DNA of 64,000 nt from Owenia fusiformis (taxonomy: Eukaryota; Annelida; Polychaeta; Sabellida; Oweniidae), in NCBI GenBank assembly GCA_903813345.2, contig CAIIXF020000005.1:35283375-35347374 (forward strand). The letters are read 5' to 3'. The translations under genes were made by a program, and so were the position numbers. The notes beneath the pieces are model-generated. The model ran no database searches, was not told the origin of the DNA, and saw only the letters and a program-made list of their open reading frames with translations. Each line of letters begins with the position of its first letter. The first letter of the stretch is position 1. Below are positions 4,201 through 42,600 of this stretch, in pieces.

Positions 4201-7200
4201 GTACTTATTTTCTGAGTATTAGATAGTGAGACCATCTTGACTTATCAAGGTATTTTGTATGATTGAAAGGAACGTAATGTTATTCTGTTATTATACAGTA
4301 TGACATAATAAAGAAAAAATCCGAAGCCAATCAGGAATGAATGGCATGTTCAATTAAAAATCTTGTCATATTCAACCTTAGGCATTGTCTTTTAATACGA
4401 AAAATGAAGAAAACACAATGTCATCTTTCATACGTGAACAATAGCTTTGCTTTAATGGCGTAAAAATAGATAAATCATTAAATGAATTAATATGGTTAAT
4501 GTGGTTTTTATATACCACTTTGCTTGGTATCTCTGCATGTCTACATAAAAGGGAGTGAAAAATTGAAAAAGAACTAACATTATCTTCTTAATATAATAGT
4601 AAGTGGGAAATAATGTGGATGAAGAATCAATGTAACAGATTCTTGGTTAATTATAGTACTTTGATTGATGGGTGAAATTGCTTGACCTGAAACCTTTATC
4701 TTTCTGATGACAAGCCTGGCATTTGACGGTGCCCTTTAATGAAATACAATGATGAACATCGACAACATTTTTTTTATTTAAACCCACTTTACGATCTTGA
4801 TAAGGATAAATTGCTGAAATACTGATCTAATTCATTAACTCTTTGATGTAAGAGACTGTATCTCAGTCATTTTGATTTGAATATTTGATATACTGTAAAA
4901 CGTTTTTGTTGAATTATAAGAATGGGTTTGATATGGACAGTTGATTGTAATACGTATGATCCTTTTTGTTTTTATGAAAGTAAGAATAGAGACTTAAAAC
5001 TAATAACAAGACTTGTTGTTTTGAAATATGATCTCATGTGTGAATATTTGTTAAAATATGACAGGCTCACTTGACAGAGTAATCACCTTTGCTGGACCAC
5101 TGCTACTATTAAGTTGTCATGGCCCTGTCAAATATGCCACATTATAATGCCAGTTATATTCAATTACAATTTTGTCAGAATTGAATTCAGCGTATTAACT
5201 ATTGTTATAAATAGGTTGAGTTAGAGATGACCCTATTACATGAAAAGTTAGAGATGCGCATTTAATAGGTTGAGTTAGAGATGACCCTATTACATGAAAA
5301 GTTAGAGATGCGCATTTAATAGGTTGAGTTAGAGATTACCCTATTACATGAAAAGTTAGAGATGAGCATTGAATAGGTTGAGTTAGAGATGACCCTATTA
5401 CATGAAAAGTTAAGATGCACATTTAATAGGTTGAGTTAGAGATGACCCTATTACATGAAAAAGTTAAGATGCACATTTAATAGGTTGAGTTAGAGATGAC
5501 CCTATTTCATAAAAAGTTAGAAATGAGCATTTAATTGGTGGAATTAAAGATGAGCCCTTAAAGGTCGAGTTAGAGATTAGCCTTTAAATGAATATTTTCT
5601 CTCCAGGTATCCCAATATACATTTGCCATGTGTAGCTACAGAGAGAAGAAACCAGACCCTACTGAGATGATGCAATTAGATGGTTATACAGTGGACTATT
5701 GTGACCCAATAGCAGGTAAATATCCTTTTTATGTCCCCACCACATAGTGTAGACCCTGGTGAGATGATGCAATTAGATGGTTATACAGTGGACTATTGTG
5801 ACCCAATAGCAGGTAAATATCCTTTTTATGTCCCCACCACATAGTGTAGACCCTACTGAGATGATGCAATTAGATGGTTATACAGTGGACTATTGTGACT
5901 CAATAGCAGGTAAATATCCTTTTTATGTCCCCACCACATAGTGTAGACCCTACTGAGATGATGCAATTAGATGGTTATACAGTGGATTATTGTGACCCAA
6001 TAGCAGGTAAATATCCTTTTTATGTCCCCACCACATAGTGTAGACCCTACTGAGATGATGCAATTAGATGGTTATACAGTGGACTATTGTGACCCAATAG
6101 CAGGTAAATATCCTTTTTATGTCCCCACCACATAGTGTAGACCCTACTGAGATGATGCAATTAGATGGTTATACAGTGGACTATTGTGACCCAATAGCAG
6201 GTAAATATCCTTTTTATGTCCCCACCACATAGTGTAGACCCCACTGAGATGATGCAATTAGATGGTTATACAGTGGACTATTGTGACCCAATAGCAGGTA
6301 AATATCCTTTTTATGTCCCCACCACATAGTGTAGACCCTACTGAGATGATGCAATTAGATGGTTATACAGTGGACTATTGTGACCCAATAGCAGGTAAAT
6401 ATCCTTTTTATGTCCCCACCACATAGTGTAGACCCTACTGAGATGATGCAATTAGATGGTTATACAGTGGATTATTGTGACCCAATAGCAGGTAAATATC
6501 CTTTTTATGTCCCCACCACATAGTGTAGACCCCACTGAGATGATGCAATTAGATGGTTATACAGTGGACTATTGTGACCCAATAGCAGGTAAATATCCTT
6601 TTTATGTCCCCACCACATAGTGTAGACCCTACTGAGATGATGCAATTAGATGGTTATACAGTGGACTATTGTGACCCAATAGCAGGTAAATATCCTTTTT
6701 ATGTCCCCACCACATAGTGTAGACCCCACTGAGATGATGCAATTAGATGGTTATACAGTGGACTATTGTGACCCAATAGCAGGTAAATATCCTTTTTATG
6801 TCCCCACCACATAGTGTAGACCCTACTGAGATGATGCAATTAGATGGTTATACAGTGGACTATTGTGACCCAATAGCAGGTAAATATCCTTTTTATGTCC
6901 CCACCACATAGTGTAGACCCCACTGAGATGATGCAATTAGATGGTTATACAGTGGATTATTGTGACCCAATAGCAGGTAAATATCCTTTTTATGTCCCCA
7001 CCACATAGTGTAGACCCCACTGAGATGATGCAATTAGATGGTTATACAGTGGACTATTGTGACCCAATAGCAGGTAAATATCCTTTTTATGTCCCCACCA
7101 CATAGTGTAGACCCTACTGAGATGATGCAATTAGATGGTTATACAGTGGACTATTGTGACCTAATAGCAGGTAAATATCCTTTTTATGTCCCCACCACAT

Positions 7201-10200
7201 AGTGTAGACCCTACTGAGATGATGCAATTAGATGGTTATACAGTGGATTATTGTGACCCAATAGCAGGTAAATATCCTTTTTATGTCCGCAACCACATAG
7301 TGTAGACCCTACTGAGATGATGCAATTAGATGGTTATACAGTGGACTATTGTGACCCAATAGCAGGTAAATATCCTTTTTATGTCCCCACCACATAGTGT
7401 AGACCCTACTGAGATGATGCAATTAGATGGTTATACAGTGGATTATTGTGACCCAATAGCAGGTAAATATCCTTTTTATGTCCCCACCACATAGTGTAGA
7501 CCCTACTGAGATGATGCAATTAGATGGTTATACAGTGGATTATTGTGACCCAATAGCAGGTAAATATCCTTTTTATGTCCCCACCACATAGTGTAGACCC
7601 TACTGAGATGATGCAATTAGATGGTTATACAGTGGATTATTGTGACTCAATAGCAGGTAAATATCCTTTTTATGTCCGCAACCACATAGTGTAGACCCTA
7701 CTGAGATGATGCAATTAGATGGTTATACAGTGGATTATTGTGACCCAATAGCAGGTAAATATCCTTTTTATGTCCGCAACCACATAGTGTAGACCCTACT
7801 GAGATGATGCAATTAGATGGTTATACAGTGGACTATTGTGACCCAATAGCAGGTAAATATCCTTTTTATGTCCCCACCACATAGTGTAGATCCTGGTGAG
7901 ATGATGCAATTAGATGGTTATACAGTGGACTATTGTGACCCAATAGCAGGTAAATATCCTTTTTATGTCCCCACCACATAGTGTAGACCCTACTGAGATG
8001 ATGCAATTAGATGGTTATACAGTGGACTATTGTGACCCAATAGCAGGTAAATATCCTTTTTATGTCCCCACCACATAGTGTAGACCCTACTGAGATGATG
8101 CAACTAGATGGTTATACAGTGGATTATTGTGACCCAATAGCAGGTAAATATATTTCTTATTATTTCATGGTTATCATGTTTGAAGTGTGATGTGCAGTGC
8201 AAAAGAGTGAAATTAACAAGAGTGAATAAGAACAGGCATGTAGTCATCATTTTTTTGTTGTTAAACCAAACACTTTTTATCAACATTATTAATTACATGC
8301 CCAGATAAGTTCTATAAAGTCATAAAAATGATATATGATTTTTGTTTCAGATGTTGAGGGTGGGCGACATTTCTTCAATGTTGTTAAAGAGGGCGATAGT
8401 GTGATGTTTGCCACGGATGATGAGAATGAACGCCAGCTATGGGTACAGGCTGTTGTGAGAGCCACGGGGCAGTCCCATAAACCAACACCCCCACAAGTGC
8501 AGCAGCCTAATAGGATCAGCAACACACAGATATCAAGGATGCAAGGAGGTGAGAGAGAAACTGACTTAATGTTAAATGAACCTCTATAAGTGAACAACCT
8601 TCAAAGTGGAACACTTTTAGAGATTCCAATTGTGTTCAACTTAGACAGGTTTACTGTAATCTTAACAGGGTTCGTACACACCTGGAAATGTCAGGGAAAT
8701 TGATTTATTTTTCCAGGTGCTGGAAATGTCAGGGAATTTTAAAATTGGGTCAAAAAGGGCCAAAAATGTCAGGGAATTTTGAAACAGTAGATGTGTCAGG
8801 GAAATGTCAGGGAATTTTGTATCAATGTTGAAAGAATAATGTTCCAGCAAAATACATTTTAGGGCTATGACAGGATATAAGTGAAATCCCAAATCATCTA
8901 GTTGTTTCCACAAATTGCAAATCTTTTCATTAGGGTTGGTTGAATGACATTAGATCTGGTATTGTCTATTTGTAAGAACAGTGTGAACATTACACTGAAA
9001 CCGAACAATAAAAATAATGTATAGATGATTTAATACAATTATGCTTTTTTATGTAGTAAGCTTAGTCTTAGGCCATTCAAAGTTAATTACTGGTATATAT
9101 TTCATGGTTTGATGAGGGGTTAATCTGAGGGGGGGGGCGGGAGGTGAAAAACAAAAAAAAATTCTGGGAGCTCTTTACAATGTAAAATTGTATTTATATT
9201 AAGAAGCTGTCTGTTCGACAGTCCGATTGTATGTTAGTCTTTTCAACTTTCAGGGGCTTTGCCAATTTTAAAAACCTTAGCACAAAATGTGTGTGAGGTA
9301 CTATTAACAGTTTTTGAATTTGGTCCAAATTTTTCTTCTTGTAAAGATGAACCCAGCATTTTACTTTGGCTCAAATTTTGTATGATGTAGCCTTAGGGAC
9401 AAAGACCTGCTCAAGAAGAAATATTCAAGATGGTCTCTGAATTCAACATTGCCACCATTTTTTATGAAATTTTTGATAATTTAAAGAAATTTGATTCCTG
9501 ATAACACAAAATACTGATTATTTGATTTGGTATCATAGGCCTGAGCCTTTTCGTGATCTGGTGATGCTACTTGAGAAGGAATTTCTAATATGGTGTCAAT
9601 TGTTTTGGTGTAATTTTCCCAAAAGGGAGAAGACAATAGTAATGCCAGGTTATTGCTATCATATAATGTTCACAATGGTAGTATTCAATAGAAATATGTT
9701 TCATTAGGTGGGAATTGTCCCTCAAGTGAGTTGCTATTTTTCTAGGAGAATTTAGATCAGAATTTTAAAGTTTCAGTTGTCATTTGGATTCATTACAAAA
9801 CATTAACAAATTATAGTTTAAAATGCTTAGAATGCACCATATACAATTGTCAATTTAGAAAAATTTCCGGGGGTGAACCCCCGTACCCCCTTTTGGTTTT
9901 CCTTAGCTTGCAGTGATGCAAACCCCAAAAGATGCACCTCCTTGACACTTGTTGGCTATGCCCCTGTACATGTATGTTTACCTTTGGCCTTATGCAATGT
10001 AAAATATGTAATATTAAAAATAAAATGTATCAGGAATAAATTGGTGAATAAGACTGCCTGTTCAAGTAGCTAAGTCATGAGAAATGGTACTGAAGGAGAA
10101 ACCCCAAATGTTTCATAATAAGTCTTTTTGTCTTGAATAATACAGTTGTTTGAGACTTTTTAGAGGGTGCGCGAGGAAAATTAGATCTGGAAATTTCCTT

Positions 10201-16200: not shown

Positions 16201-19200
16201 TTAAATGTTGTCAGAAAGATAAACTGTTACCTGTATGTAACACACAGCACAACTGACTTGTAAAAATCATCGTCAAATATATCATTGAATATATTTTAAT
16301 TTGGAATTTTTCCATATTGTGTGGACTTACTAATATATTTAAGATCACTAAATAAAGCAAAAATCTGAAAATTAGGTTTATTTAAAATTATGTTTTAAGT
16401 TCTAGGTCTCAATAAACTAGTTACAATGTATATTATATTATCTTATTATAATATGAATCCGGGAGTCTTCAACATTTCTGACATGAAAAGTTCAATTTTA
16501 TTTTCATTTTAGAGCATTTAGTTCATAGTATAGGTGTACAAAAAAATGTTTAGTCAATACTTTAATGGCTATGTCCCCGGTCCCTTTTCATGTTTCATAG
16601 CAAGTACATGTATAGTTATACTGTATATGTTTTATTAGTAGAGATTTATAGTGTAGTTGATAATTTGATTTCATTCCAATATTGAAATAAAGTATATATA
16701 TTTAGCTACATATCGTGTCACTTAATAATTTTAAAAATGTCTTCACTCATTTGTCTGAAAATTTCAAGTATCAAACATGAAATGGTTTTATAGAATTTTT
16801 CAATAACTACAAACTCGAACATACAGATATTAAGCCTATATAACATTGTAGTATTGTACTAGATTTGTATTGTACAAGGTTTGTATTGTACTAGGTTTAA
16901 GGGTATGGGGTTGTAAAAGGTTGTAAGGCAATGTCTATTGTATTATGGGATGGTGGCCAATTTTCAGAGTTGTGGAAAACAAAGTTTAATTATTAATTAT
17001 GTGACAGCTGTAACCCCTTACTCTATGCGAGAATGTAAGAATGTTGTTGCCATTCTCTTGAATTTTCCCGAAAAATCAACAGTTTTCACCAACAAAATCC
17101 TCAATATCCCTCCCGAGATATCCAAATTAACTTCACTTCTCACATCTGTTGAAAATTCGACACCAGACCTGAGTGACACATATAAGTCCCTTATTCTCTT
17201 AAATTCTATTAGCCAGTCGCATTCATTTTCTGCTTAATATTTGTAGATTCCTACGATGATGGATCCCCGTCAAAACGCTTAGAGGCAATTATCCGACTTG
17301 CCGAACTTTGTATCGAAGTATTACAACAAAATGATGAACATCATGCTGAGGTAAAAGCTCTAAGTATTGCACTGTATAGTCTTACATGCTGAATATTTGA
17401 ACGTGTCTTGTAGCGTAATGCTAATATAATTGCTAAGATTATGTATACTGTTCTATAGGAATCGTGAGAAATTCTAATGGCAAATCTTTCGATATCCAGG
17501 GGCAATTTCTCAATTTTTAGGACTTACATCTCGATTTTCTGGTCCGATTTCTAAATTTTGAACAGATCCATATGATTTGTTGGATTAAAAAATTTTCTGA
17601 CTTTTCCTGAGAATTTGCCCCATTTTGAAGAACCTGTATATAAGTATAGGTGGTGGTGGGTCATTAAGGCTTTAGGGTAATGCTGAATTCCTTGTGGCAT
17701 TTTTGAAGACTTTCTCTGCTGATTTTAAGTTGTTTTAAGAGTGAATGTTTGACTGAGATGTGTGAGTACATAGTTTCCTAATAGTTAAAATGCCATGAAA
17801 ATACACTATAGACATACTGGTGTCTTCCTTAATAGTGTAGAAATAAATAAATAAGAAGTTAAATAACATCAGTCTTGGTGTAGCCCAAATGACATTTTAA
17901 CTAATAGGGTGTTTGGCTGTGATCAGAGTGGGCAAGGTTTCTAATGAAGATTTTTTGTATAACAACCTATTTCGGTTCTTTTTCTCTCTCTCATTGCTAT
18001 CTATTTAAGGCATGTTTTTCATAAAATCTACATCTTACCTTTATCTGTTCATACTATTTATTTCAAAAAAGCCTTGTATCATTTAAATTATTTTATTCCT
18101 CTATTTTATTTCATAAGTTAATCTACATACCTCTAGAAACACACAAATGCATGCTAACAAAGTCTTATGGAAGAGACAATAATAGGAACTTTATCTGTAC
18201 AACTGAAAATCAGTACTTGGATGTATGGAATTATGGTCCTCAAAGGATAAGTTCTCCCCTTCGTAGTATTGACTTGCCTAATTGAGTTTATTGGTACAAG
18301 GAAAGTAGTTGTAACTAGGTGGTTGGAAAAACAAATTGAAGGAAACATAATCCCTTGGGGTCATAATGTTACACATTCATGTACAAGTTCCATTTAAAAC
18401 ATGTCTAGATTAACCTCCAAGAATTGCCATACATGCATTAAAGATTAAACATTAATAAATGTATGGCAGTTCTTGTAATTAACATATGTTTTAACATAAT
18501 TTGTCCCCAATACTTCCATATAATCCCATATGATAGTACAATATGGTTTATACTGTTCTGTTGATTTAGCATGACCCTATTGTTAAAGTCCTGACATCAT
18601 CTGTTTGACCTGACATCATTTGTCCAACATGACATCATTAACCTGTCTTCAAAGTTTTTGCCATAGTTTGTCTTTTTTCATAATAATATGGTAATTTAAA
18701 ATTCCCTAACATCAAGTTCTTTAACATACTAGTAAGCCTACACCCTTAATACAACTATTGTTTTGTATTCATTTGAATTTATTTTGCAAACTGTACAAAA
18801 ATCACAATTAAGTTACTATGGCAAAACCTTGAAAGACTTTAGCAAGCAACTTATGTACTTCTTTGCCGTAAAGTTCTTTCCTTTCTTATTTATCCACCTT
18901 GTGTGTTTCTGGTATAAAGGCGTGTCATTTTTATGTCACCACCACAAGTGGTGACATATCGTTATAGTCTCATACACAAGTGGTGACATATTGTTATAGT
19001 CTCCAATTTTTGTGGATGGGGTTTGGCAGTTGGTGTTTGGCAGTCGGCATCTGTAACAAATGGCAGGTGGTGACATTTTGCATGTTAATGCCTTGTTCTG
19101 TTTATTGTCACATAGAACTCGTATGAGTTCAGAAACTATGTAAGATCAAAAACTATCATGGGTTAGGCAACCAAGTTGACTTAAGTCTATCTACAATAGT

Positions 19201-22200
19201 ATATTAATTCATCACAAAGAAATATATATTTGTCTTTAGTGTATATTTGGCAGTAACTTTAAGTATATCAAAAAGATGGCAAAAGTAGCGTTATCATCAT
19301 ATAACCTGCATATATATATTTTCCCAATATGTTCCCAGCTCTCATCTTTGAAAACACTGTAGTTCCAATTGCAAACATCTTTGATTTTAGTATCCTTTAT
19401 ATATATAAAATGTTATTTTTTGGTAAAAATGGCAAAGGTGTTGTAAAAATAGCAAAGTAAGCCAGTCATTGTCCTCTGAAACATATTTTAAAACGTACCC
19501 CCCCCCCCATCTTTGAAAGCTGGTTTGGTATTTTCCCTAATTTCTAAAGACTTGGTTTGACCTCTAAGCTAAACCTATGATTTCAGTTTTCTTTTTTCAT
19601 TTGTTACTGTTGATAACAGAGTATTGGGTAAAATAATGTATGCATTATATAAAAATTGCAGTGTTTTCAAAAGTAAGTTGTATTTAAAATGCATGTGTTA
19701 AGTTAGTAAATGCAATCCTTAAAATTAATTATTTATTCTGATTTATTCATTTGTTTGTTTTTTCTTATTATTCTGCATATTTATTCTGCAGTCATATTGG
19801 GTTAACATTTTATAAAATTTTGAAAAATGACTTAAATTTGTCATTCCATAATTTCTTTGGTATTTTCAAACATGAGTATGTTTTAAATAGAGAGAATGTG
19901 ATATAGACAGGAAATTGTACTATACTGTTAAAAACATTGTGTACTTTTGCTTACACTTGTATACTGCACTTCAACCAAAATATTTGATTGGATTCATCAA
20001 AAAAATCTTGGATTGCATTTCTAACTGTACCAATCGTTGTAACTGAATTAATCATATTTGATGTACTTCCTTTTCCAACAATCTCATTGGCTACGTATCA
20101 GGCATTTTTGGCGGTGAGTTTGGTTTGAAATCATCCAATTTTTAACATGTTTTACAATTTTGGCTTTAAATATGAATTTCATTGGTGATTGGGTTATGGT
20201 CTTCAATTACATTGTATTAGCTTTTTTAAGCGAAGATTCTTTGTTTTTCCATCTATAAATGATAAGACATCAATTCTTAAATATATTGTATATGTTTTGT
20301 TTAAGTGCGTCACACGACCATCTGTAAAAGTGTTTTGTAATCCTTTGTCTCAACCATGTATATAACTGTACTTTATGATTATGTACTATTTCTTGGTATT
20401 TTTCTCTTATTGCCATATTTGGCTTGCCTGACCATATTTGGGCGTGTTGTGACTGTTATGGTGTGTGGGATTTTAGAAAGCGAAGGTATTTTTATCATTA
20501 TTATTACATTATATTACATTTTGGATGTCATTTTTGTGAATGGCTTTTCACATGATCTTAGGCTAATAGCTTCACATTATCTAATTACATGTAGTAGAAA
20601 AATGTTTGAGAAAATGTGACATATAGAACATGTATATGTAGATCCATATTTGAAATGATCACACACATTTTCCCAGGCATTTTAGGATGCACAGTCTGCT
20701 TCAGTAAAATCGACATTTCTCATTTTTGTTGAATTTACTGAGGCAGTTTTTTACCTTAGAGCACAGAGCTACTGCAATATGTCTATTTTACTGGATTTGT
20801 TTACCCTTGGTCATTAAGGAGAACAGAATAACTTTAAGATGTTTGTAGCTCTGTGCATCATTTGGTGTGATTTTTACTCAAGGTTGAAGATTGTGTCACC
20901 CGCTGCGTACCATATGGGTTTTTAAAAGAACCGTCCAAGTAAGATTGGGAAAAGGTTTTAGAAAATAAAAGTGATTCTGGGAGACCCAATAATATGGGTC
21001 ACAAGAATGGCAATGCATATATTGATAGAATTCTGGCTGCCTCTGTGGTACCTCCCATATCCTGAAATTGGTGTGGTTGGTGGCACAAAGTTTAAACTAT
21101 ACTTTTACTAACATTTTAAGGGTTTCTTCTATTTTATATATTATCTGCATCAAGTCTCTGTGGACTCCTTTCCCCTATCACCTTCTGCATGGAGAATGGG
21201 GGAGAGGGGGTGGAGACAATAGATTATTGCCTTAAAGCACTTAGACCTGATTGGCTGGAACTATCCTCCAGTTTTGATTGGTCAGTCAGAGGTACACAAC
21301 CAATATAATTCGACGCTGTTAGGCATCGAAAAAATTCGGCACTGTTCCTGCACCGTTTCGACACCGTTCCGGCACCGAAACCTTCCGACACCAAAATTTA
21401 CTACCAGACTAGTCAGTCCATTTGGTGCCGAGACGGCACTGAAATTTGGCACCGAAACGGCGTCAGCATTTTGGGGGTGTATACATTTCACTGTACAGTC
21501 TACCTCTGTAGAAACAACTGTTGACCTATTTGGCATACTCTCTACTGCAAACTCTCCCAGTCATCAATGAAATCTTTGGAATATCAGAGGTATTCAACCA
21601 GTCTACTTCTACAGAGGTCAACAGTTATGTACTGTAAAGTCTCTATATTATGGATAATGGTCAGTACTAGGTGCTTTAGGACATTTTTATTATTACATTG
21701 AATGCTGGTATGTATTTACATTATTGCTATGATATTATTATATGTGTTGTACCTTTTAACAAATTAATGAAAAGCAAGCACTTTTAATTGGTAGTAAAGG
21801 GGCATCATATTAGATACTAGTATTTTATTATGTCCCAAACTTAATGTTGGGATATATATGGCAAAACAAGTATATGTTATTATGTCCATGTGTTTCTATG
21901 ATTTTTCAAAAATTTTTGAGAATCCTTTGTATTGTGTTTAAATTTCTGAAGCATCAAGCATGAAAACTGTGAATGGTTTGAAATTTTATTTTATGAACTG
22001 CAACATACTATTCTGATCTTGTTCATCTTTAAGGTAGACAATTTGATCAAATTATCTCTGGAGTTGAAAAAAAGATCTGTTTTTGCATATCTATTTCTGT
22101 TGAACTTGTTGTTTACTATTATTCAAAACCCGATTGACATTTTTTTCGCTCAATAGGTTTAGAAATTTTTGCAATAGGCTGGGAACAATTTACACATACA

Positions 22201-25200
22201 TTTTTGGATCTTATGCACTTAGGTTATAGGGCATGTTCACCTTAGTTTGGAGACATTTTGCACAATGGTAATGGAGCATTTTTCACTCATGGGATGGGTC
22301 ATTTTGCATATCATTTTCGGTCATTTTGAGATATCTGGTTGGGAGACATTTTGTGCTGAAGCCTTGGTGCAGTTTGAGGACATTTTGCACAGAAGCATTG
22401 GAGCATTTTTCACTTATGGTGCAGGTCATTTTGCATATTAGTCAGGGGCAATTTAAATATGGTTGGAGCCATTTTATGCAAAAGCTTTTTCGGGCATTTT
22501 TCACATACTGTGTGGTTTGGACATTTTTAACATAAGTAAAGGCACTTTAATGACATTTAACCATTAGCTGCCTTATGGAGGAAATATGTTTATAAGTAGA
22601 TCTACATTGATGTTTAGAGCGTGTCTGTAGAATCTTTTTGAGATGATCATTTTAAGTAAATAATGCATAAATTCTACTTAGTAAATTATTGCTTATATTT
22701 AATAAAACTAATACTTCATGTTGTACATATTTCTTTATATTATTATCATTAGCATGTTCTGAATGACAACTCATTTGTAGGAAACCTTTTTTGCACATAT
22801 TAAAAAAATATGGTATTAAATACATTGACAAAATATTAGTATATAGCACCATTAACACATGTATCACACACAAAACTATATTCATATGAACTAGTACTTT
22901 TTCAGATTTTCAGATCAACATAACATTTTACACCAAGTTCCATTTTTGGTGCAATTACTTCACCCATTTCATTGGTTATTTCAAAAATGGACCTCTGGTT
23001 CATATCGTTATTTCTGAATTTCCTATCGAGGTTTAAGAATTCAAGCATTTTAACTCATGATCAATAATAAATGATAAAAGAGAACGTGCACAAGTCGCAG
23101 TTCTAAACACAAGACTGCAAGCCGAGATTTTGGGCTCGTATACTCTGTAACTTGTTGCATTGTGTCGACGTGTTTAAATTCTTTACTTATATATGTTACA
23201 GTCATTTGCATGGTTCAGTGAACTGCTAGTGGAGCACGCAGAAATCTTTTGGTCTTTATTCGCTGTTGATATGGATGCCGTTTTGGAGATGCAACCACCA
23301 GATACATGGGATAGTTTCCCACTTTTCCAAATGCTGAATGATTACTTAAGAAACGATGGTAAGTTTGTGACCCTATTACTCTGGGCTGCGCATGTGGATA
23401 GTTTGTCAACCCAAGGGGGCTACCCTCAGTTACCTACTGCAACTAGAGTGTAAAGAGGGGGGTTTTAAAGGGGAGGAGGAATGGGGGGGTCACTAGGGCA
23501 TGATGAGTCTAATCTATTAATGTGTATCCATTTAAGGAATACCCTTTTCAAATGGCTCAAGAAGGGCTCCACCTATACTCTTTATATTAGAAATAATTCT
23601 TTGATCTAACCTATCCAATCATAAAATCTTGAATGTATTACAGGAAAGGGGGTGTCTAAGAATGAACTCTGCAAACGTCAGCATCAAAGACAACATTTTA
23701 AGAAAATTAATCATGTTTACATTTTAGATAACCTTCGAGATGGGAAATTCCATATGCATCTACGGGATGTATTTGCTCCCCAAGTTGTGAGATACGTTGA
23801 CCTTATGGAATCCAGTATTGCACAGTCCATACACAAGGGCTTTGAGAAAGAACGCTGGGAACCCCAAGGGTCAGTATAAACCTACTAAATTTCTCTAATT
23901 TATTTTACTGACTGCCACCTGTTATAAAACAAACATCAATGAATTTCTGTAAATCTTTTGAAATCCTCTCTAACTTCCTTTATCCACTTGAGATCTTTTG
24001 TTTCATTTTTTGCGTTTCTATTGAATTGTAAAGGATGAATTAAAAATGTGTTGAATGAAATATTTTGAAAATATGAATGACTAGAATGATATGTTTATGT
24101 ACAGTTGTAGATGTAAATATAGCACTGAGCACCCCATGTTAAATATTAGTAATTCCCCAACTCGTCTTAAATGTATATGGATCCACGCTTGTATTTCAAT
24201 TTAATGAAATCTACTCACTCGAAGTGTATTACTAGTATATTCTAAGTGGCTTTGATTTTGATTTATATAACAAATTACTGACATTTTGTGAAACTTTTAG
24301 AAGTCTTTTTTTGAAATAACCAAAAAATACAGAGTGGATCTTATACAATTATCTGTACTGAAAAACTGTACATAAAATTCTGAAAATCTTAATATTGTAG
24401 TAATTTTGAGAATGAACATGACTGTATTACCAGCCATCTAGGCTACTCAGATAGAATTTTGGTGTTGTTACTCTGGAGATTTTGCAATCTCACTTATAAC
24501 TTATGTACTTGTAACTTATAAAGTTACTTATAACTATAATGGATATTGAAGCGATTTTTATGTCACCACCATAAGTGATGACATATTGTTATAGATGTCT
24601 CCAACCTTTTTGTGGATGGTGTTCGGCGTCTGTAACAAATGATGTCTGTAACAAATGGCAGGTGGTGACATTTTGCATGTTTATGCCTTGTCTAGTTCTT
24701 ATGTTTATGCCTAAGCAGTTTATTATAGTATAAGTAACTATAAGTTACTATATGTGAGCTTGCAAATCTTCATCATTGTGTTTTAAACACCTAATGAATG
24801 GCAATGAATGAATTTTACCTTCACTGTAAATGGCTCTCTCTGCTTCTGTGTATTACAGGCGTGGGTAAGGTCTTTCTTTTAAACTTGGACCATCATTCAG
24901 TTCAACTTGTAGCTTTTTACTCTGTTATGTTTAATAGAGGATGTTGGTGCCAGGGGTCATTTCTCAAGTTTGTTTGCCATTTGTAACTTCAATGATTGAC
25001 ATTTGTTATTTTGTACACCATTGGTTTCCTAGCAAGGTTCATAGACTCCCTAATCAACATAAAATAGTCTCCATTAAAATACCCTTTAATCTATATGTAG
25101 CGCTCTTCATCTTACTTGAAATACTCTCTAACCTAGTATAGAATATTTTTAACTCTTTATAGGATACTCCATGTACTCTCTTGACAATGTAGAAGACTCT

Positions 25201-28200
25201 AATTTAGGCAGAATGTCTCTACTCTCTAATCTATGTAAACTGAAATACTCAACAAATAATTTTTTTAATCTACAAAGAAGACCATCTTCTCTATAAAATT
25301 ATATCTAAACTGTTTTGTTTGAGAAATGGCACCCTGTTAATTAAGCTATATATAGCCCTTGTTTAATATAATCTAACAATCATATATACTTGAATTAGTT
25401 AAATGCTCTGTCTTATCAATTTTATTTATTTACCTTATTTAAAGAGGTACTTTCTGTTTAATATCTGTTTCAAAATTATTCTTTCTAAACTTTAATCATA
25501 CGTTTATAGCCAACCCATGAGAAAAGTATGAAATGATTCTATTGAACAAAAATCCAAATTCTCAAAGTCATTTTTTTGATTTCAAAATCTAAGTGGTTAT
25601 ATAAACCATACATTCATCTACAATAGTGATTAGGATATCTTCATTTTGCTCATAGCTACTAAAAATAAAGATTAAAGATAGTGCCACTTTAATGCATAAA
25701 TGTAGGAATGGTTTTAGTGTATTAAGAGGCCAACTATTGCATGATCATTTATATTCTGTCATATCCTTCATTGGTGTCCAAGTATTTTGTGTTATGATCA
25801 TTCTTATGATAAAAGGTGTGCCCTGTATATATATGTTTCATCTGTAGAGAAATACACAAGCTCGTGTTTTGGATATATTTGCCAAAACCTAGTCTAGCTA
25901 CAAGCCCTTGCACACTCGTGTAAAGTGTTTAATCAAATAGAGGGGGTCACAGAGGCTTGTAGCTAGACTAGCCAAAACCCTGAAAATCTATTGCTGTAAA
26001 TCTCCCAGTCTACAATTCCCAGGCTCAAGGGGATTATTTTTGGCTTTTTTCTAGACAATAAAACATAAATCTTTCAGAATATGATACCCCATGGAGTATA
26101 GAATCAGCTATGTGGTGGTATGTTTTGGCCGGGGTTTATGGGGGGATGGGGGGCTTCTATATGTGTATCTCGGGAAGGTCCTGTAACAATGGAAATTCCA
26201 TAATAGAGATCTTTCCGGATAGATACCCTTGACTTATCATTTATTACAAAAATTCCACATTTTATTTTATTACTACATACAGACATAGGTATGAATAATG
26301 AGCTGTGTGAAGTGTCGTGAATTTATTTGTAGATGTGAATAGTTCAGTACTAATTCAACACAAGCTCACAGTATTTCTACTTTCAAATACATGTCTGGCA
26401 TTCACAAACTTTTGTTCCACTCAAAATGCAATTTCACACTGCAGTGTAGGCCTAATATAATGTTCACTTTCACATATTTCTCAATGTATTTTTGACACAA
26501 TTTTTGTTTGTATACTTTACTTCTGTACTTTCCTTCATTTACTCTTGAATCAACTTTTGAGCAGATTTTTAGAATTACAAGAATGATCATTAATTATTTT
26601 CGGGGGTCTATCAGAAGTATAATCTAAATCCCTTGTTTTGATTGTTTTGTTTGGTTTGCAAAATCCTACCTAGGCTTATATAATTTACCAAAACTTCTGA
26701 TCAATTGTTTTTAGGTCAAATGTTTTCTGTCCTATAACAATTTTCAGATAAATGAAAATGGCCATTCATCTGAGCCAATTCCTCATATTCACTTTATGAA
26801 GGTCTATGTCGATGACATTTATCCCCCCTCTTTCCTTGCTTCATTATTGAGAAATCAGCTTTTTTGATCAAGTTTTTTTCTGAATGATGCCATTTAGGCT
26901 TTACTTCATGGCTCTTTATTTAGCCCGATGGACCCCTTTATTTTTTTGTTATGTCACCTCCACAAGTAGAGACATATTGTTATTGTCTCCAACTTTTTTA
27001 TGGATATTGTTCGGTGTTTGACAGTTGGCATCTGTAACAAATGGCAGGTAGTGACATTTTGCATGTTAATGCCTTGTCTTTTTTATCGCACTTTGAAAAA
27101 GTGCTATATTGTCGTCGTCTTGTGCTGTTGGGCGGGTGTGCGTGCGGGCGGGCGGGACATAAACCAAATCTTGTCATCAAATTTCCAGGATAACTGCTTA
27201 CCTGTTCAACTTGAAATTTTTACAGATGCAAGAGCAGACTAGTACCAAGATCTGATTAGGTTAAGGGCATGCTGGGTAAACTACGTGGCGGCCATTTTGA
27301 ATTTTTCAACAAATCTTGTCATCAAAATATCAGGAAAACCACTTATCCGTTCAACTTGAAATTTTTACAGATGCAAGAGCAGACTATTGCCAAGATCTGA
27401 TTAGGTTTTGGGTATGCTGGCTGAATTACATGGTGGCCATTTTGAATTTTTCAATTTGGCGGCCATTTTGAATTTTTCAACTTGCTCCAAATTGACCAAA
27501 TTTTTTTTAAAAAAACATCTACAAGTTCTCAGAAGTTCATATCTGACCTTAGATTTCAGATTTGACCTTTCGTTCACCTTCAGTGACCTTGAAAAGGTCA
27601 AAAAAGTTGATTTTCTAAATTGATATTTTGGATTTCAATTTAGGTCAGCTTAATTACAAAACACCTACTGAGGTCTGAAAAAGTTAAATTTTCAAGGTCG
27701 AAGGTCAAGGTCATTAAACTAGGTCACAAATGATGTTATCCAAGTTTCTCAAAGTTTGAGACTACAAATCAATTCCTGTCATCAAAATTCCAAGAAAACC
27801 GCTAACCTGTTCAACTTGAAATTTTTACACATGCAATAGTAGACTAGTGCCAAGATCTGATTAGGTTAAGGGCATGCTGGGTAAACTACGTGGCGGCCAT
27901 TTTGAATTTTTCAACAAATCTTGTCATCAAAATTCCAGGAAAACCACTTATCCGTTCAACTTGAAATTTTTACAGATGCAAGAGCAGACTATTGCCAAGA
28001 TCTGATTAGGTTTTGGGTATGCTGGCTGAATTACATGGTGGCCATTTTGAATTTTTCAATTTGGCGGCCATTTTGAATTTTTCAACTTGCTCCAAATTGA
28101 CCAAATTTTTTTTTTAAAAACATCTACAAGTTCTCAGAAGTTCAAATCTGACCTTAGATTTCAGATTTGACCTTTTGTTGACCTTCAGTGACCTTGAAAA

Positions 28201-31200
28201 GGTCAAAAAGTTGATTTTCTAAATTGATATTTTGGATTTCAATTTAGGTCAGCTTAATTACAAAACACCTACTGAGGTCTGAAAAAGTTAAATTTTTAAG
28301 GTCGAAGGTCATCAAATTAGGTCACAAACAATGTTATCTAAATTTTCCCAAAGTTCAAGACTACAAATAAATTCTTGTCATCAAAATTGCAGGAAAACCG
28401 CTAACCTTGTCAACTTGAAATGTTTACAGATGCAAGAGCAGACTAGTGCCAAGGTCTGATTAGGTTTTGGCCATGCTGGGTAAATTGCATGGTGGCCAGT
28501 TTGCTCTTCAAAGTGCGATATTTATCACTGTGTGTCTTGTTTATTGTTATAATTGTTACGCATGGCAATTCATCACTCGTTTAGATGTGCTATATTCTCT
28601 CTAGATTGTGCTTCTGTTGACTAGTGAACTTAACACAACTCAATCGTGTGCATCCATATTTAACACTGATTAGTAATGAACACATTTATGTGGACAAAAA
28701 ACCTGGAATCTTGTTTTTCTTCTATTTTATTAAACAGAATGCATGAAATACTTAAAGAATTTTTGAACCTATGGTTCTCTATACAAGTGAAAAGTTGTTT
28801 GATGTAGTACTCCCTATTAAAGTTACTCAGGTTTTTCAGTGAAAGTTTGAAATTGAAACCAGTGCATATTGATGCATTCCCATATAAACATGAGCAATAA
28901 CCCAAAATTGGACACTTCTCGGTCAATCTGATGTGAATTTGAATACTCAAAATATAAAAAATGGACTCTCTGTACTCTTAGGTCAGGATGTGCCACATCA
29001 GAAGACATGCTATGGAAATTAGATGCCCTCCAGTCATTCATCCGTGACCTCCACTGGCCCGATGAGGTGTTTGCTGAGCATCTTGATCACAGATTAAAAC
29101 TCATGGCATCCGATATGATTGAAGCTGCAGCCAAAAGGTATGTATGTTCCTGTAGACACAATGCATAATTGTTACTATGCTTGTACAGTATAACAAGAAT
29201 TGAAAGTCTTTAACAATGGATTAGACCCCATCCACCATAATAAAGCTTTCAGGATATTAAATGAATGACACACATCGACCCATTTTCAATTTTAAAGTAG
29301 CCCTTTACATAAACCCCTCAAATGAATTTACTTTTTAATATCTAGAAATGACATCCATTGTTGATTTCCTCACCCCTGAAGATGAATATTTTTGAATCAA
29401 ATGAAAATGTCAACATATCATTGAGACACATTGCCTCATATTGTTTAAATAATTAAAAATCCCTATATTAATGTTTGAGTATTCATTATCAAGTGGTGAC
29501 TTATTCTTATAGTCTCAGACTTTTTTTTGGACAGTGTTCGGTGGTTCGTGTTTGGTGGTTGGCATTCAGCAGTCGGTGTCTAACAAATGCCAGGTGGTGA
29601 CATTTTGCATGTTTATGCTTTTTCTGATATTTTGTTTTTTCATTTGTATTTAAGGACGCTGAAATCATTTGAAGCATTGCTAAAGAGGGGAGGAAAGGGT
29701 ACAGACTACGTCATTCCAACTGAAGTTGCCGTCATGGTTAACGTCATCATAGACTTCAAAAATCAGGTAATTATACATCCATTGAAAAATTTTCACAAAT
29801 ATCTGAAATTTTATTCACAAATATCAATGATTTATCATTAAATCTATAATTAATATTAAAATAAAATTGTAAAAAGCATGTGCTTGCTCATTTTTGAATT
29901 GATTTTAGCCAAATTTTTGATTTTCATAGTTTGTGATTTTGTAAAATGGAATGCATATTTGAGAAAAATTATGACTTGTAACATGCTACATTGGAATTAT
30001 TGTATGTCGTCATGTTTGCTTTTTGCCTTCCTGTGCGCAGTATGCATTTAATCCCATCTTCAGCGTAGGTCATATTTTAAAAACTCTGTCAATTACTGCA
30101 ATGTGGCACAAAACGGCATCTGAACTGCTCATTATTCTTATGTGCCACAATGTTTTTTGCGATCTTCACGTGTTGCTGTGTGTGCTGTCTCATTCTCGCA
30201 ATGCAGTCTCTATTTTTGAATTTTATTTACAGTTCTGAGTTTAAGGTTTTTACCTTCTTAAAAGAGTTGAATCTTATAATTTGTTTTATTTTGCTGATAA
30301 TACATGTATCAGGTACTCAAACCTGTGGATGGAAAACCACTTGTTTCCATATAGACGTTATTCTTGTGTAGTTTTAGTTTCTTATATCACATCTGTACTA
30401 ACCAGGCTTCATCATATCGTGAGCATTTTAAGCTCTGCACTGAGCCAGTCATACTGCTGAGTTCTCTTTAACACACTGCCGTTGCCTTAGCTATGGTACT
30501 GCTAAAAAACTCATTGTATCATGCGATCTGGTTAGTACCCTTTTACATCAAGAGAAACATCTTTCGGGTCATGTTTTCAAATGTGAAATAGAACAAGAAG
30601 GAGTGGAATTAGCAAGGAATAAACTATACAAGCTTGGAGTCAACATTTTCCATTGTATAGAAATGACAGACCAGGCAAGGCAATGTGGATGTTCATCAAG
30701 GTTTTAGAGAGAATAGGATGAAATAAACAGAGATAAACAGTGTGGGAAATAAGCATTTTTTGTGCCTGGACCATTTTGTCCAGCCACTTTGAAACACTCC
30801 AGACAAATTCTTTTTGACTGGTCAAAATTTTGACCAGACAGTTTAAAAACACACTGGATAATTTTTTGTACTTGGTCAATGTAAAATAAAAAAAATATAT
30901 CTGGAAACAGAAGGGGGGGGGGTATAAATGATTGAAATTCTTAACCATTGAATTTCATATTTTGCATTGTTTCATTTGTAGACAATTTCTTCCTCAGAAG
31001 AAGGCCAATTTATATTCTTTTATTTGATGTGTAAAACAAAATTCATTGTCTCATGTCTCAAAAAAATCTATCTGGACAATTTTGACCACACAGTTTGAAA
31101 CAGTCTGGACAAATTTCTTTTCAGACTCGACATTTGTCCGTTGTCCGGTGCTTATTTCCCACACTGGATAAAGTGAAATCTGATAATTGAAACACATGAT

Positions 31201-34200
31201 CTGAATTACATACACAATCTAATAATATCATATTTCTTTTCTAGATGTTCAACAAAAACCTTTTTACTTGCAGTTGGAATGAATCTTGATATTCACCATT
31301 ACTTTTGAATTTTCCGATTGGGGTTTATGTTTGTTCTGATTATGACTGACTAAGATTATGAATTTAGATTTTAGAGGTGTACAGCCGCACTCCCACTCCA
31401 CTATGCTATATCACATTGCTATCCACGCATTACATCGCCAAATTTTATTTTTAATACCTAGAAATGCATGTTATGTTATGTAACAGTTATATTCTATCAA
31501 TATTTTGAAAACCTCATATTTATGAAAAAGTAATGTAATTTTATTAGCTTGCTAAAATAAAAAGGCCTTTGGTAAGGTTTTATAAAGAAAGGATCTCCAT
31601 GAGGAGTCCTGTATATACATGTGCCAGTAGTTTGTATCCCTCAAAAGCAAAATGCACGAACAATGCATACCTCTGAAGATCTTGTTATACAGTCTTTAAC
31701 AGGTTTAACAGATTAAAATTCCTTGTCATCCATTGGATTAATAAATAAGGTTCTCTCTCTTGATGATTCAGCTTATATCGTTGACTGTATTACACTTTGC
31801 ATTATGCTTTTGAGGAAATACTAGATCTAGAAGCAACTCCATTCTGTTAGTGACACTCATTCTCACCGAGTCTATGAGGTAGCTTACACTACCATAACTT
31901 TGACCCCACGATGCAATGTTCTACTAACCCTTTACTGTGATTCGTCGATATCGTTTGTAGAATTGTGAAGAATTGCAAGCTTACAGATCTACTAAATTTG
32001 TGCACTGAATGTAGATCATGAGAAACATTCTTCTAAGTTCTGATTGGTCAGTATAGTTTCAAGAATTGTGGATCTTATGAACCATAAACCTAAAGTTTCT
32101 CTAAGCTCTAATTGGTCAATTCATTTTGTACATTATTTAGTTCTTTGCTCTGATTGGTCAAATTTGTTTACAAAATTAGGGATGATATGGACCATAAGCC
32201 CACAGATCTAGAGACTATTCCCTTATTGGTTGGTATAGTTTGTACTTGTACATGCATGAAATTTATAATATGAACCATAAAACTCAAAATTGAAGATCTT
32301 TCCTTTGATTGGTCAATGCAACTTTTTAAGTAGTAGATATTTATGGTAGTGTTTAGCCTCCTCTGTGTCTATGGCTGTAGCAACTATACTGTACTGTATA
32401 ATGTCTAACACTTATACTCAAATCCATGCAAAATGCAATATTTACCATGTTAATTCTTATTACCATGTTAATTCTTATTACCATGTTAATGTTCATAACC
32501 CTTTACATATCTTATCCTAAATGATGTTTGGCATTTTCTTATATAAATGTAAAGCTAAACTGAGAGTTGCTGTTGTGTTATGCAAAACCAACAAAACCAA
32601 CCATCAAAATTAATGAGCAAACATAGTCAAAAGAATCAATTTATTTGACATTTGGCCAGGCTATATTTTCTGAGGGATGTTCATGAGATTGTAATTATAG
32701 ACTCCACTTGTTACTTTATTTGAGGAGATTTACATGGTAAATGTCTGCATTGGTTGCATTAGTCATATATGAAATATCACATGCTCATGCAAATAGAATG
32801 GTCATGCAAAATATATTCTGTGCTAAAGTGAAATGAAAAAGTTTAGTATGCTGGGAATCACAAGGGCTTGAAACAAGACTTTTACAGTTAAACATGTATA
32901 TCCAGACACCTCTTTGATATAAACACCTCTCAATATGAACACTTTTATCTGTCCAAATTTTGTATTTTCCCATTGACTAACATGTTAAAAAAAATTGAAA
33001 TATGAATTCCTGCTTATCCCAACACTTTTGGCTGATCCAAATGGTGTTCAGATAAGATTTTTACTTTAGTTGCTTTTCTGAAGTAAATACCGTACACATT
33101 GGCAAAATTTTCATGAATTCCTTAACTAATTCAATTAATTGAATCATGACTCAATGTGATATTTCATACATGAGTTGTAATGTAAGTGTCCTAGGTGGTA
33201 GTCTAGAGCGGGGGTCGCTATGCTTTCTATACTTGCAGGCCATGAAGTTATGCGCACTGGAGGGAGGCGAAGATATGGTATGCTTTTTATGTTACTTCAT
33301 TTATATGGTTTGAAGGGCATTTATGATTTTGATCCCAAAGATAATCAAACTCATCATTTGCTATATTATATTTTATCTAAGAAAAAAATTCTCAGTAAAA
33401 CTGAAAAATCAGAACAACTTTGTGGGAAAGTTTTAATGTAATACAGACATTATCATAGGACAATTATTATAGCAATATGACAAGATTTACTATTTTTTTT
33501 TCAATTATTTTGATCATCACGAAATTACAAATAAACATGTATTGTTCCGATTATATTCCGATGTTTTAAATACGAGTACAATTGATTGTATATTCACTGT
33601 TATTCAGTATACTTTACATGGGGTTTGTGGTCCGTGCATGCTGCATATTTGTAATAGATAGCGCTATCACTAGTTTATTCCAAATAAAGTTGTGTAGAGG
33701 CTACAAAATAACATTTATTGAATACCCATAATGCAACAGCTAGCTCCTAGCAGACGTCACTAAGCAGAAGTCACTAATTCCTGGGGTTTGATCAATTTTA
33801 ATTTCAGGCTATTTTTTTAACAATTTAAGGTCCTGTTGTAGACAAGTCATCAACCTTTTAAGACTATTTTTCAAGATATTTATAAGTGTTTTATTAAAAA
33901 TGAATTTACTTTGTGGATACTGACTCACAGCTGAATTTTATACCATGGATATAATTTTAAAAGATATAGTAAAAGTTTTAAATAAGATTGAACAAATCAT
34001 AATTGAATGTGTTATTTTTGAGCACAGCATGAATATCACACTAAGAATGACGAGTTCCTGGAGAACATTCAAAAGGAGATGCAAAAAAGTTTAATTGAAA
34101 AAGTAAGTATTACTCGCAATTTCTCAAAGTTTACACATTCCATTACATTAGTTTTGTTTCACAAATTACTTTAAATAATGCAAAGAATTTCCTATCCATT

Positions 34201-42184: not shown

Positions 42185-42600
42185 CATGATAAATGTCATG
42201 ATTAATTGGCAGCATTATCACAATGATTAATTGGCTATGCATGGCATGATCAATTGGTTGTATATGCTATGATTAATTGGCAGTGTATGTCATGATTAAT
42301 TGGCAGCATTATCACAATGATTAATTGACTGTACGTGCCATGATTAATTGGCAGTGCATGCCAGGATGAATAATTGGCAGTGCATGCCAGGATGAATAAT
42401 TGGCTCTGCGTGCCATGATTAATTGGCTGTGTGTGCCACAATTAATTGGCAGTGTATGTCATGATTAATTGGCAGCATTATCACAATGATTAATTGGCTA
42501 TGCATGTCATGATTAATTGGCAGTGCATGCCATGATTAATTGGCAGTGCATGCCATGATTAATTAGCAGTAAATGCCATGATGAATTGACAGTGTATATA
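42185..42600 (+). repeat. Minisatellite with ATGATTAATTGGCAG core
   Basis: About twenty copies of an 18-24-bp unit, such as CATGATTAATTGGCAGTG, with a higher-order pattern (GCATTATCACAATGATTAAT occurs three times). The ATTAAT core is palindromic. Confidence 0.9.

What the first reader, a model, noticed from the sequence alone, without database searches (positions are those of the whole stretch)
5656..8143. PH-domain exon end plus splice donor amplified 26-fold as frame-neutral 60-nt cassettes
The array unit is not random intron. It is the last 60 nt of a CADPS exon, its GTAAAT donor and 37 nt ending in TAG. Each cassette, bounded by TAG and the donor, is 60 nt in phase 1-1, so splicing to any copy, or including several, adds whole 20-residue blocks ([16 protein letters not shown] plus DPIA) without a frameshift. 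Units are nearly identical. The frequent differences I see in the cassettes (CCT/CCC, GAC/GAT) are synonymous, with only a few non-synonymous ones. The 37-nt spacer is too short for a normal intron, so adjacent copies cannot easily splice to each other, but distant ones could. This may be a donor-redundancy array, a source of PH-domain length variants, or a recent slippage expansion with no effect.
Basis: partly seen in the sequence, partly recalled or inferred. Interest (0 to 1): 0.88.

Follow-up and report, generated by a model that had tools for sequence, protein, structure and literature searches.

The report
Exon-end repeat array with transposon stub
In what looks like an invertebrate genome, the last 60 letters of an exon of a secretion gene, its splice signal and a 26-letter piece of a mobile element are repeated 26 times at the start of the next intron; it is most likely a neutral repeat array seeded by the mobile element, and possibly a glimpse of how new exons could be born.

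Summary
The array is real: 26 copies of a 60-nt cassette (5656-8143) with spacers of 37-38 nt and identical donors, at one place in a 498-Mb genome. The gene is CADPS.

The unit is exon end + donor + HINE stub. A second locus (L031) shows the same kind of event once: host flank plus the same stub duplicated in tandem, HINE still attached.

Exon-boundary arrays are known in amphioxus as "mirages" and reportedly do not disturb splicing. Most likely this is a neutral mirage-type minisatellite, in a lophotrochozoan-like genome. The cassette varies no less than the spacer. "Frame-neutral" holds only for the lower-scoring acceptor (TGTAG); CATAG gives a 65-nt exon that stops at its second codon. Inclusion in mRNA is untested. 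The boldest open reading: HINE ends recurrently seed such duplications and lend them a 3' splice site.

The parts
5607..5715 (+). CADPS exon (PH domain, VSQYTFAM...CDPIA), 109 nt; its last 60 nt are array cassette 1
5656..8143 (+). array of 26 cassettes of 60 nt (consensus [20 protein letters not shown]), spacing 97 or 98
   Evidence: TRF; copy table; whole-genome search; exon-core recount
5716..5723 (+). intron start GTAAATAT, repeated with every unit; the only donor that is productive without an array acceptor
5725..5750 (+). first of 25 stubs: first 26 nt of a HINE-like element (CTTTTTATGTCCCCACCACATAGTGT), cut before GGGGCC; 22 of 25 stubs are exact
5751..5752 (+). AG before cassette 2: in-frame acceptor (60-nt cassette). 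The CATAG acceptor ends at 5747 and gives a 65-nt cassette that reads V-stop
8084..8143 (+). cassette 26, with the synonymous change T21C seen in no other copy
8144..8350 (+). native intron after the last unit (GTAAATATATTTCTT...); no match to the 24 HINE loci
8351..8548 (+). next CADPS exon ([15 protein letters not shown]...)
17258..35607 (+). span of 5 MUN-domain matches of the same gene (17258-17356, 23184-23369, 23712-23870, 28965-29138, 35491-35607; in the last the tool counts one TAA)
   Evidence: coordinates converted from C5

Best explanation
It is a mirage-type minisatellite: a tandem array spanning an exon-intron boundary. A HINE (non-autonomous Helentron) landed next to GTAAATAT, 8 nt inside the CADPS intron (inferred). 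A tandem duplication ran from within the exon (before AGACCC) to nt 26 of the element, inside the predicted hairpin of its 5' end (the junction is shown; the event is inferred). Unequal exchange or slippage raised the copy number to 26 (inferred). The element was lost from the last unit, perhaps by recombination with an allele that never had it, or only a stub was copied in during repair (inferred). The mRNA most likely joins donor 5716 to acceptor 8351 and removes the array as intron (inferred from amphioxus precedents, not tested). The array is thus mostly neutral.
For: Copy table and single location. The 26-nt stub occurs 300 times exactly in the genome (reversed control 0), 22 of them in the array; all 24 other places fetched run on into a common element. 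L031 holds an exact two-copy, 113-bp duplication of host flank + the same stub, broken at the same base, with the HINE attached. Cassette no less variable than spacer. 38-nt spacers follow only C41T copies, 3 of 3 (P 0.024), as spread by exchange predicts. Amphioxus mirages: same anatomy, reported not to interfere with regular splicing (passages of PMC3087553, and PMC3902484).
Against: No RNA was available. Synonymous change is mildly over-represented (4 of 8 sites; P 0.049-0.112, or 0.029-0.069 if the two-base change counts once). The donor is strong (98.7th percentile of GT in the window) and CATAG outscores the real acceptor at 8351 (5.13 against 4.76), so cryptic use is plausible. Variant C41T is not clustered along the array, as local spread might predict. 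L031 kept its HINE whereas CADPS has none, so the loss step is extra. No relative's CADPS locus could be compared.
Confidence: 0.75

Rival explanations
1. The array is a bank of cassette exons: one or more 60-nt cassettes are spliced in through the TGTAG acceptor, adding 20-residue blocks to the PH domain between DPIA and DVEGG.
For: Each unit after the first is preceded by a pyrimidine-rich stretch and AG from the HINE stub and ends in a strong donor; one or two 60-nt cassettes keep the frame. 26 of 26 donors identical. Mild excess of synonymous change.
Against: TGTAG scores 3.09, below CATAG (5.13), which breaks the frame and stops at once. Neighbouring cassettes are 37-38 nt apart, below the 43-nt intron named as spliced in the passages I read, though that paper's candidate list starts at 37 nt (PMC4463651, abstract and passages). 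Cassette varies no less than spacer. Amphioxus mirages are reported to be skipped.
Confidence: 0.1
2. The array is a poison-exon or splice-decoy device: its CATAG acceptors divert splicing and send a share of CADPS messages to nonsense-mediated decay, tuned by copy number.
For: CATAG outscores the native downstream acceptor in a rough matrix; the 65-nt product reads V-stop; the site is repeated before 25 cassettes.
Against: The matrix is recalled and human-like, not fitted to this species. Variation in the spacer is low but not significantly lower than in the cassette. No RNA.
Confidence: 0.08
3. No HINE ever sat at CADPS: a repair or replication event made the first duplication and copied a short stretch of a HINE from elsewhere into the junction.
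For: The last unit runs cleanly into native intron with no HINE match. 3 places outside the array carry TATC before the same 26-mer, possible templates with TAT in common. A 26-nt stub with no further HINE match exists at L033.
Against: The copied piece starts at the element's very end, which a chance choice of template would rarely give (inference). L031 shows the duplication with a resident HINE.
Confidence: 0.3
4. Assembly artefact: the true locus has one or few copies.
For: No reads were available; the longest exact self-match is 387 nt at a shift of five units, so copy number could be misjudged.
Against: Copies carry different variant combinations along the array, and it lies inside a 42-Mb contig. 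Neither replaces reads.
Confidence: 0.05

Closest known systems
Amphioxus 'mirages' (Adh3, globins BflGb6 and BflGb9, TnC; PGBD5 similar)
   Same: Minisatellite-like tandem repeats that span an exon-intron boundary, at 5' or 3' boundaries, with variable copy number, AG/GT signals in many units, and regular splicing reported (passages of PMC3087553, and PMC3902484).
   Different: Here the unit contains a transposon end and has 26 copies, and the genome looks lophotrochozoan rather than amphioxus (FMRFamide precursor; no GFP-family match, a weak negative). The passages I read call the mechanism in amphioxus unclear.
HINE / Helentron elements (oyster Cg_HINE, pearl family, DINE-1)
   Same: Source of the stub: subterminal inverted repeat, inverted repeat beside it, GTCC/GTCT microsatellite, ~160-nt central repeats (features as described in passages of PMC7492417, and PMC4067079).
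   Different: Only the first 26 nt are in the array. The HINE arrays described in the passages I read are the element's own central repeats, not host flank plus stub.
Bivalve satellite junctions
   Same: Breaks of one satellite map to palindromes, 13 of 16 with the longer one (PMC5139131 passages), as the break here lies in a predicted hairpin.
   Different: Other satellites in that paper showed no such link; no exon is involved.
Intron gain by tandem duplication of a boundary (potato RdRp)
   Same: Tandem duplication across an intron-exon boundary that carries splice signals along (PMC4974935, outline and abstract).
   Different: A single tandem duplication with a detected new intron there; 26 copies and unknown splicing here.
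Human internal tandem repeats in segmental duplications
   Same: Minisatellites that change gene structure, often in frame (PMC2812944, sections 9 and 10).
   Different: Not described there as exon boundary plus transposon stub, in the sections read.

Membership tests
Mirage-type minisatellite (amphioxus definition) | Tandem repeat unit spans an exon-intron boundary | tested here: met
   Each unit = 60 nt of exon + GTAAATAT donor
Mirage-type minisatellite (amphioxus definition) | Copies homogenised, edge copies less so | tested here: inconclusive
   Copies nearly identical; T21C only in copy 26, C2T only in copy 24; copies 2 and 24 share A6G/C7G; T5C has a narrow span (P 0.021), C41T is not clustered
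Mirage-type minisatellite (amphioxus definition) | Regular splicing not disturbed | not testable with these tools
   No RNA reads
Mirage-type minisatellite (amphioxus definition) | Length polymorphism | not testable with these tools
   One assembly only
HINE (source of the stub) | Subterminal inverted repeats of about 11-15 bp | tested here: met
   5' ATGTCCCCACCA; of the 9 loci with a shared 3' end (10 aligned) 5 have the full 12-nt complement, 3 have 11 nt and 1 (L013) has a mismatch
HINE (source of the stub) | Inverted repeat close to the 5' subTIR | tested here: met
   CCACA-TAG-TGTGG stem in the DNA fold of the first 44 nt, z -2.4, 6 of 200 shuffles fold as well
HINE (source of the stub) | Microsatellite and ~160-nt central repeats | tested here: met
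   GTCC/GTCT runs; about 162-nt repeats in L031, L034, L035
HINE (source of the stub) | 3' palindrome near the end | tested here: inconclusive
   ACACATTTGTGT is present in 9 of 9, but the fold of the 3' end is no better than shuffles (z -0.25)
HINE (source of the stub) | T-rich target, no target-site duplication | tested here: inconclusive
   A T-rich 5' edge in most rows of the capped list (635 matches in all), judged by eye; flanks also by eye
HINE (source of the stub) | Autonomous Helentron partner in the genome | not tested
   No search was made
Cassette-exon array | Cassettes in mature mRNA | not testable with these tools
   No RNA reads
Cassette-exon array | Coding constraint above that on the spacer | tested here: not met
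   8 of 60 cassette sites vary against 1 of 37 spacer sites (P 0.15); cells 23 of 1560 against 6 of 925 (P 0.08)

The most novel reading that the evidence does not exclude
HINE 5' ends are seeds of exon birth. The hairpin at the element's 5' end breaks recurrently after nt 26 (AGTGT|GGGG), duplicating the host flank upstream together with a stub that carries a pyrimidine-rich stretch and AG acceptors. When the flank is an exon end, each new copy at once becomes a small exon with both splice sites. CADPS would be the extreme case, L031 an intermediate.
Probability: 0.2. Interest if true: 0.75.

Novelty: new variant of a known kind. Interest (0 to 1): 0.5.

Why it matters
How exon-boundary minisatellites start was called unclear in the amphioxus globin paper (PMC3087553 passage). 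Here the unit itself names a suspect: a transposon end fused to the exon, with a second locus caught at two copies. If general, it would tie mobile elements, minisatellites and intron or exon gain together, and a genome scan plus long-read RNA could test it. It would also suggest that such arrays are not special to amphioxus.

Tried and rejected
Helitron with 5'-TC and A^T target: considered from the first four loci, dropped because the flanks vary and the subterminal inverted repeat fits HINE.

Donor redundancy: rejected as a function, because donors 2-26 used without an array acceptor retain a spacer with an in-frame TAG.

Species: COX1 gave 0 matches (controls rang in 8 of 14), GFP 0 (controls 0 of 14, so a weak negative), hemerythrin 0 (controls 7 of 14). 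An FMRFamide-type pattern gave 5 hits, all within 674 nt of C6, in a 489-aa ORF with 23 FMRFGK motifs; I read this, from recall, as lophotrochozoan, perhaps annelid. The missing hemerythrin match does not support an annelid. No species name is claimed.

Other arrays of the same make: two HINE 5' ends 41-101 nt apart gave 28 matches: 21 in this array, 6 that begin like a HINE running on (HINE-on-HINE, two of them in L032), and 1 host-flank duplication (L031). At 101-161 nt apart: 0. Stubs cut before CACATAGTGT could not be found this way.

Break hotspot: of 31 matches to the 20-mer followed by a base other than G, 5 break at AGTGT (L031, L033-L036), 1 has a 3-nt insertion, 25 look like base changes. 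That pattern also demanded a last base other than G, which hid the CADPS array and perhaps others, and no other break position was measured, so a hotspot is not shown.

Papers. I saw capped listings (titles and starts of abstracts), and in them no exon-boundary array fused to a Helentron end; that is not proof of absence. The Adh3 paper is not held. PMC4039745 (outline and abstract), PMC12783039 (passages) and PMC9659126 (passages) did not settle the origin.

Report check: a recount confirmed 26 exon cores, 22 exact stubs and 23 FMRFGK motifs, found no HINE match in the native intron, and showed that the 3' inverted repeat is 12 nt in only 5 of 9 copies.
Full report
What is there. The array lies at 5656-8143 on the + strand. 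TRF reports period 97, 25.7 copies, 98% matches. Anchored on the donor, there are 26 cassettes of 60 nt; 22 spacers are 37 nt and 3 are 38 nt; after copy 26 the native intron follows. The exon core counted without the donor also gives 26, so no unit with a broken donor was missed: all 26 donors are GCAG|GTAAATAT. Of 30 matches of the 97-nt unit in the 498-Mb genome G000, 26 are here and 4 elsewhere cover only the spacer.

Which gene. Exons 5607-5715 and 8351-8548, joined, match the PH domain of CAPS/CADPS (1wi1, 7.5e-41; 7vs3, 4.9e-40) and, barely, Pfam PH (25.2 bits, cut-off 25.1). Of 13 MUN-domain matches in the genome, 5 lie downstream on the same strand in this window and 8 on C10, presumably a related gene.

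What the spacer is. Its 26-mer CTTTTTATGTCCCCACCACATAGTGT occurs 300 times in the genome (152 + 148; reversed control 0), 22 of them in the array. I fetched 24 other places, 4 chosen and 20 from the capped list. In all 24 the sequence runs on as GGGGCCATATTGTC or a close variant, then mostly GTCC/GTCT runs. Ten were aligned at the 3' end: 9 share it and 1 (L011) does not. In the 9, the inverted complement of the 5' ATGTCCCCACCA is 12 nt in 5, 11 nt in 3, and mismatched in 1. With the neighbouring inverted repeat, the microsatellite and ~160-nt repeats, this is the structure described for oyster Cg_HINE and other HINEs (passages of PMC7492417, and PMC4067079). Against: the 3' palindrome does not fold better than shuffles, and I did not look for an autonomous partner.

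Anatomy of one unit. Exon end (60 nt), GTAAATAT (as in the native intron), C, the first 26 nt of the element, AG, next exon end. The element is cut between AGTGT and GGGG, in the second arm of a predicted hairpin (CCACA-TAG-TGTGG; z -2.4). The last unit has no stub: GTAAATAT runs into ATTTCTT, and 8144-8350 has no match to the 24 HINE loci.

A second case. Searching for two HINE 5' ends 41-101 nt apart gave 28 matches: 21 in the array, 6 HINE-on-HINE, and 1 at C8:27919272. That locus (L031) holds an exact two-copy, 113-bp duplication: 91 nt before ATGTCC, most of it host sequence, then the element to AGTGT, then AA; the second copy continues into a HINE. So the two host-flank duplications that this search found break at the same base. 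A search at 101-161 nt gave none. A search for a base other than G after AGTGT gave 31 matches: 5 true breaks (L031; L033, a stub with no further HINE match; L034-L036, HINEs with internal deletions starting there), 1 three-base insertion and 25 apparent base changes. These were selected on the break position, the pattern's last letter hid the CADPS array itself, and the rate at other positions was not measured, so they do not show a hotspot by themselves.

History. The simplest order is: HINE lands beside GTAAATAT; tandem duplication from the exon to element nt 26; expansion; loss of the HINE from the last unit. T21C, seen only in copy 26, would fit a last unit brought in from an allele without the HINE, but edge copies of arrays often differ anyway. 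The rival is a stub copied from another HINE during repair: three places outside the array share TATC before the 26-mer. I cannot decide between them; the duplication at L031, with its HINE in place, tips me to the first.

Selection. Variable cassette sites: 4 synonymous (C2T, T5C, T21C, C41T; 16 occurrences) and 4 non-synonymous (A6G, C7G, C51T, C52T; 7 occurrences). The neutral synonymous share is 0.19-0.25, P 0.049-0.112, or 0.029-0.069 if A6G and C7G are one event. The spacer is not more variable: 1 of 37 sites against 8 of 60 (P 0.15), or 2 of 37 against 7 of 60 (P 0.48); cells 6 of 925 against 23 of 1560 (P 0.08). Numbers are small and copies are not independent.

Splicing on paper. One or two 60-nt cassettes keep the frame. 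But there are two AGs five bases apart. With a rough matrix typed from recall, CATAG scores 5.13, above the real acceptor at 8351 (4.76) and below that at 5607 (6.46); TGTAG scores 3.09. CATAG gives 65 nt, reading V-stop. Keeping the first spacer also stops. So 'frame-neutral' is true of one acceptor only, the lower-scoring one. The 37-nt spacer is shorter than the 43-nt intron named as spliced in the passages I read, though that paper's candidates start at 37 nt (PMC4463651, abstract and passages).

Known relatives. Tandem repeats spanning exon-intron boundaries are known in amphioxus as mirages; [quoted passage not shown] PMC3902484). This genome is probably not amphioxus: it has an FMRFamide precursor with 23 FMRFGK motifs and no GFP-family match (a weak negative since no control rang). 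The lophotrochozoan reading rests on recalled knowledge of such precursors; hemerythrin, which I had hoped would mark an annelid or brachiopod, gave no match. In the capped listings of ten paper searches I saw no exon-boundary array fused to a Helentron end.

Verdict. A real, handsome, most likely neutral mirage-type array, with a mobile-element end built into its unit. New variant of a known kind. The HINE-seeding idea rests on two loci and is worth a genome-wide test.

Noticed in passing
window 5210-5588: A second minisatellite (54-nt unit, about 27-nt sub-unit) ends 18 nt before the same CADPS exon, so this exon has an array on both sides.
   Followed up: partly
window 27165-28089: Two pairs of 145-bp repeats; 27248-28059 has stretches about 66% (up to 81%) identical to HINE internal sequence.
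   Followed up: partly
window 37757-38200 and 42193-42594: Further minisatellites (55-nt and about 23-nt units) in the same window.
   Followed up: no
L032 (C8:24129000-24130200): A 94-bp stretch starting with a HINE 5' end is present twice in tandem (90% matches), and a third 5' end follows.
   Followed up: partly
L033 (C3:13529600-13531600): A 26-nt HINE stub in other sequence, cut at the same base as in the array, with no further match to the three HINE copies compared.
   Followed up: partly
L029 (C6:23755202-23758221): FMRFamide precursor ORF of 489 aa with 23 FMRFGK motifs, many in near-identical coding repeats.
   Followed up: no
window 8680-8820: Several copies of an 'aatgtcagggaa' motif just after the next exon, looking like another repeat.
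   Followed up: no
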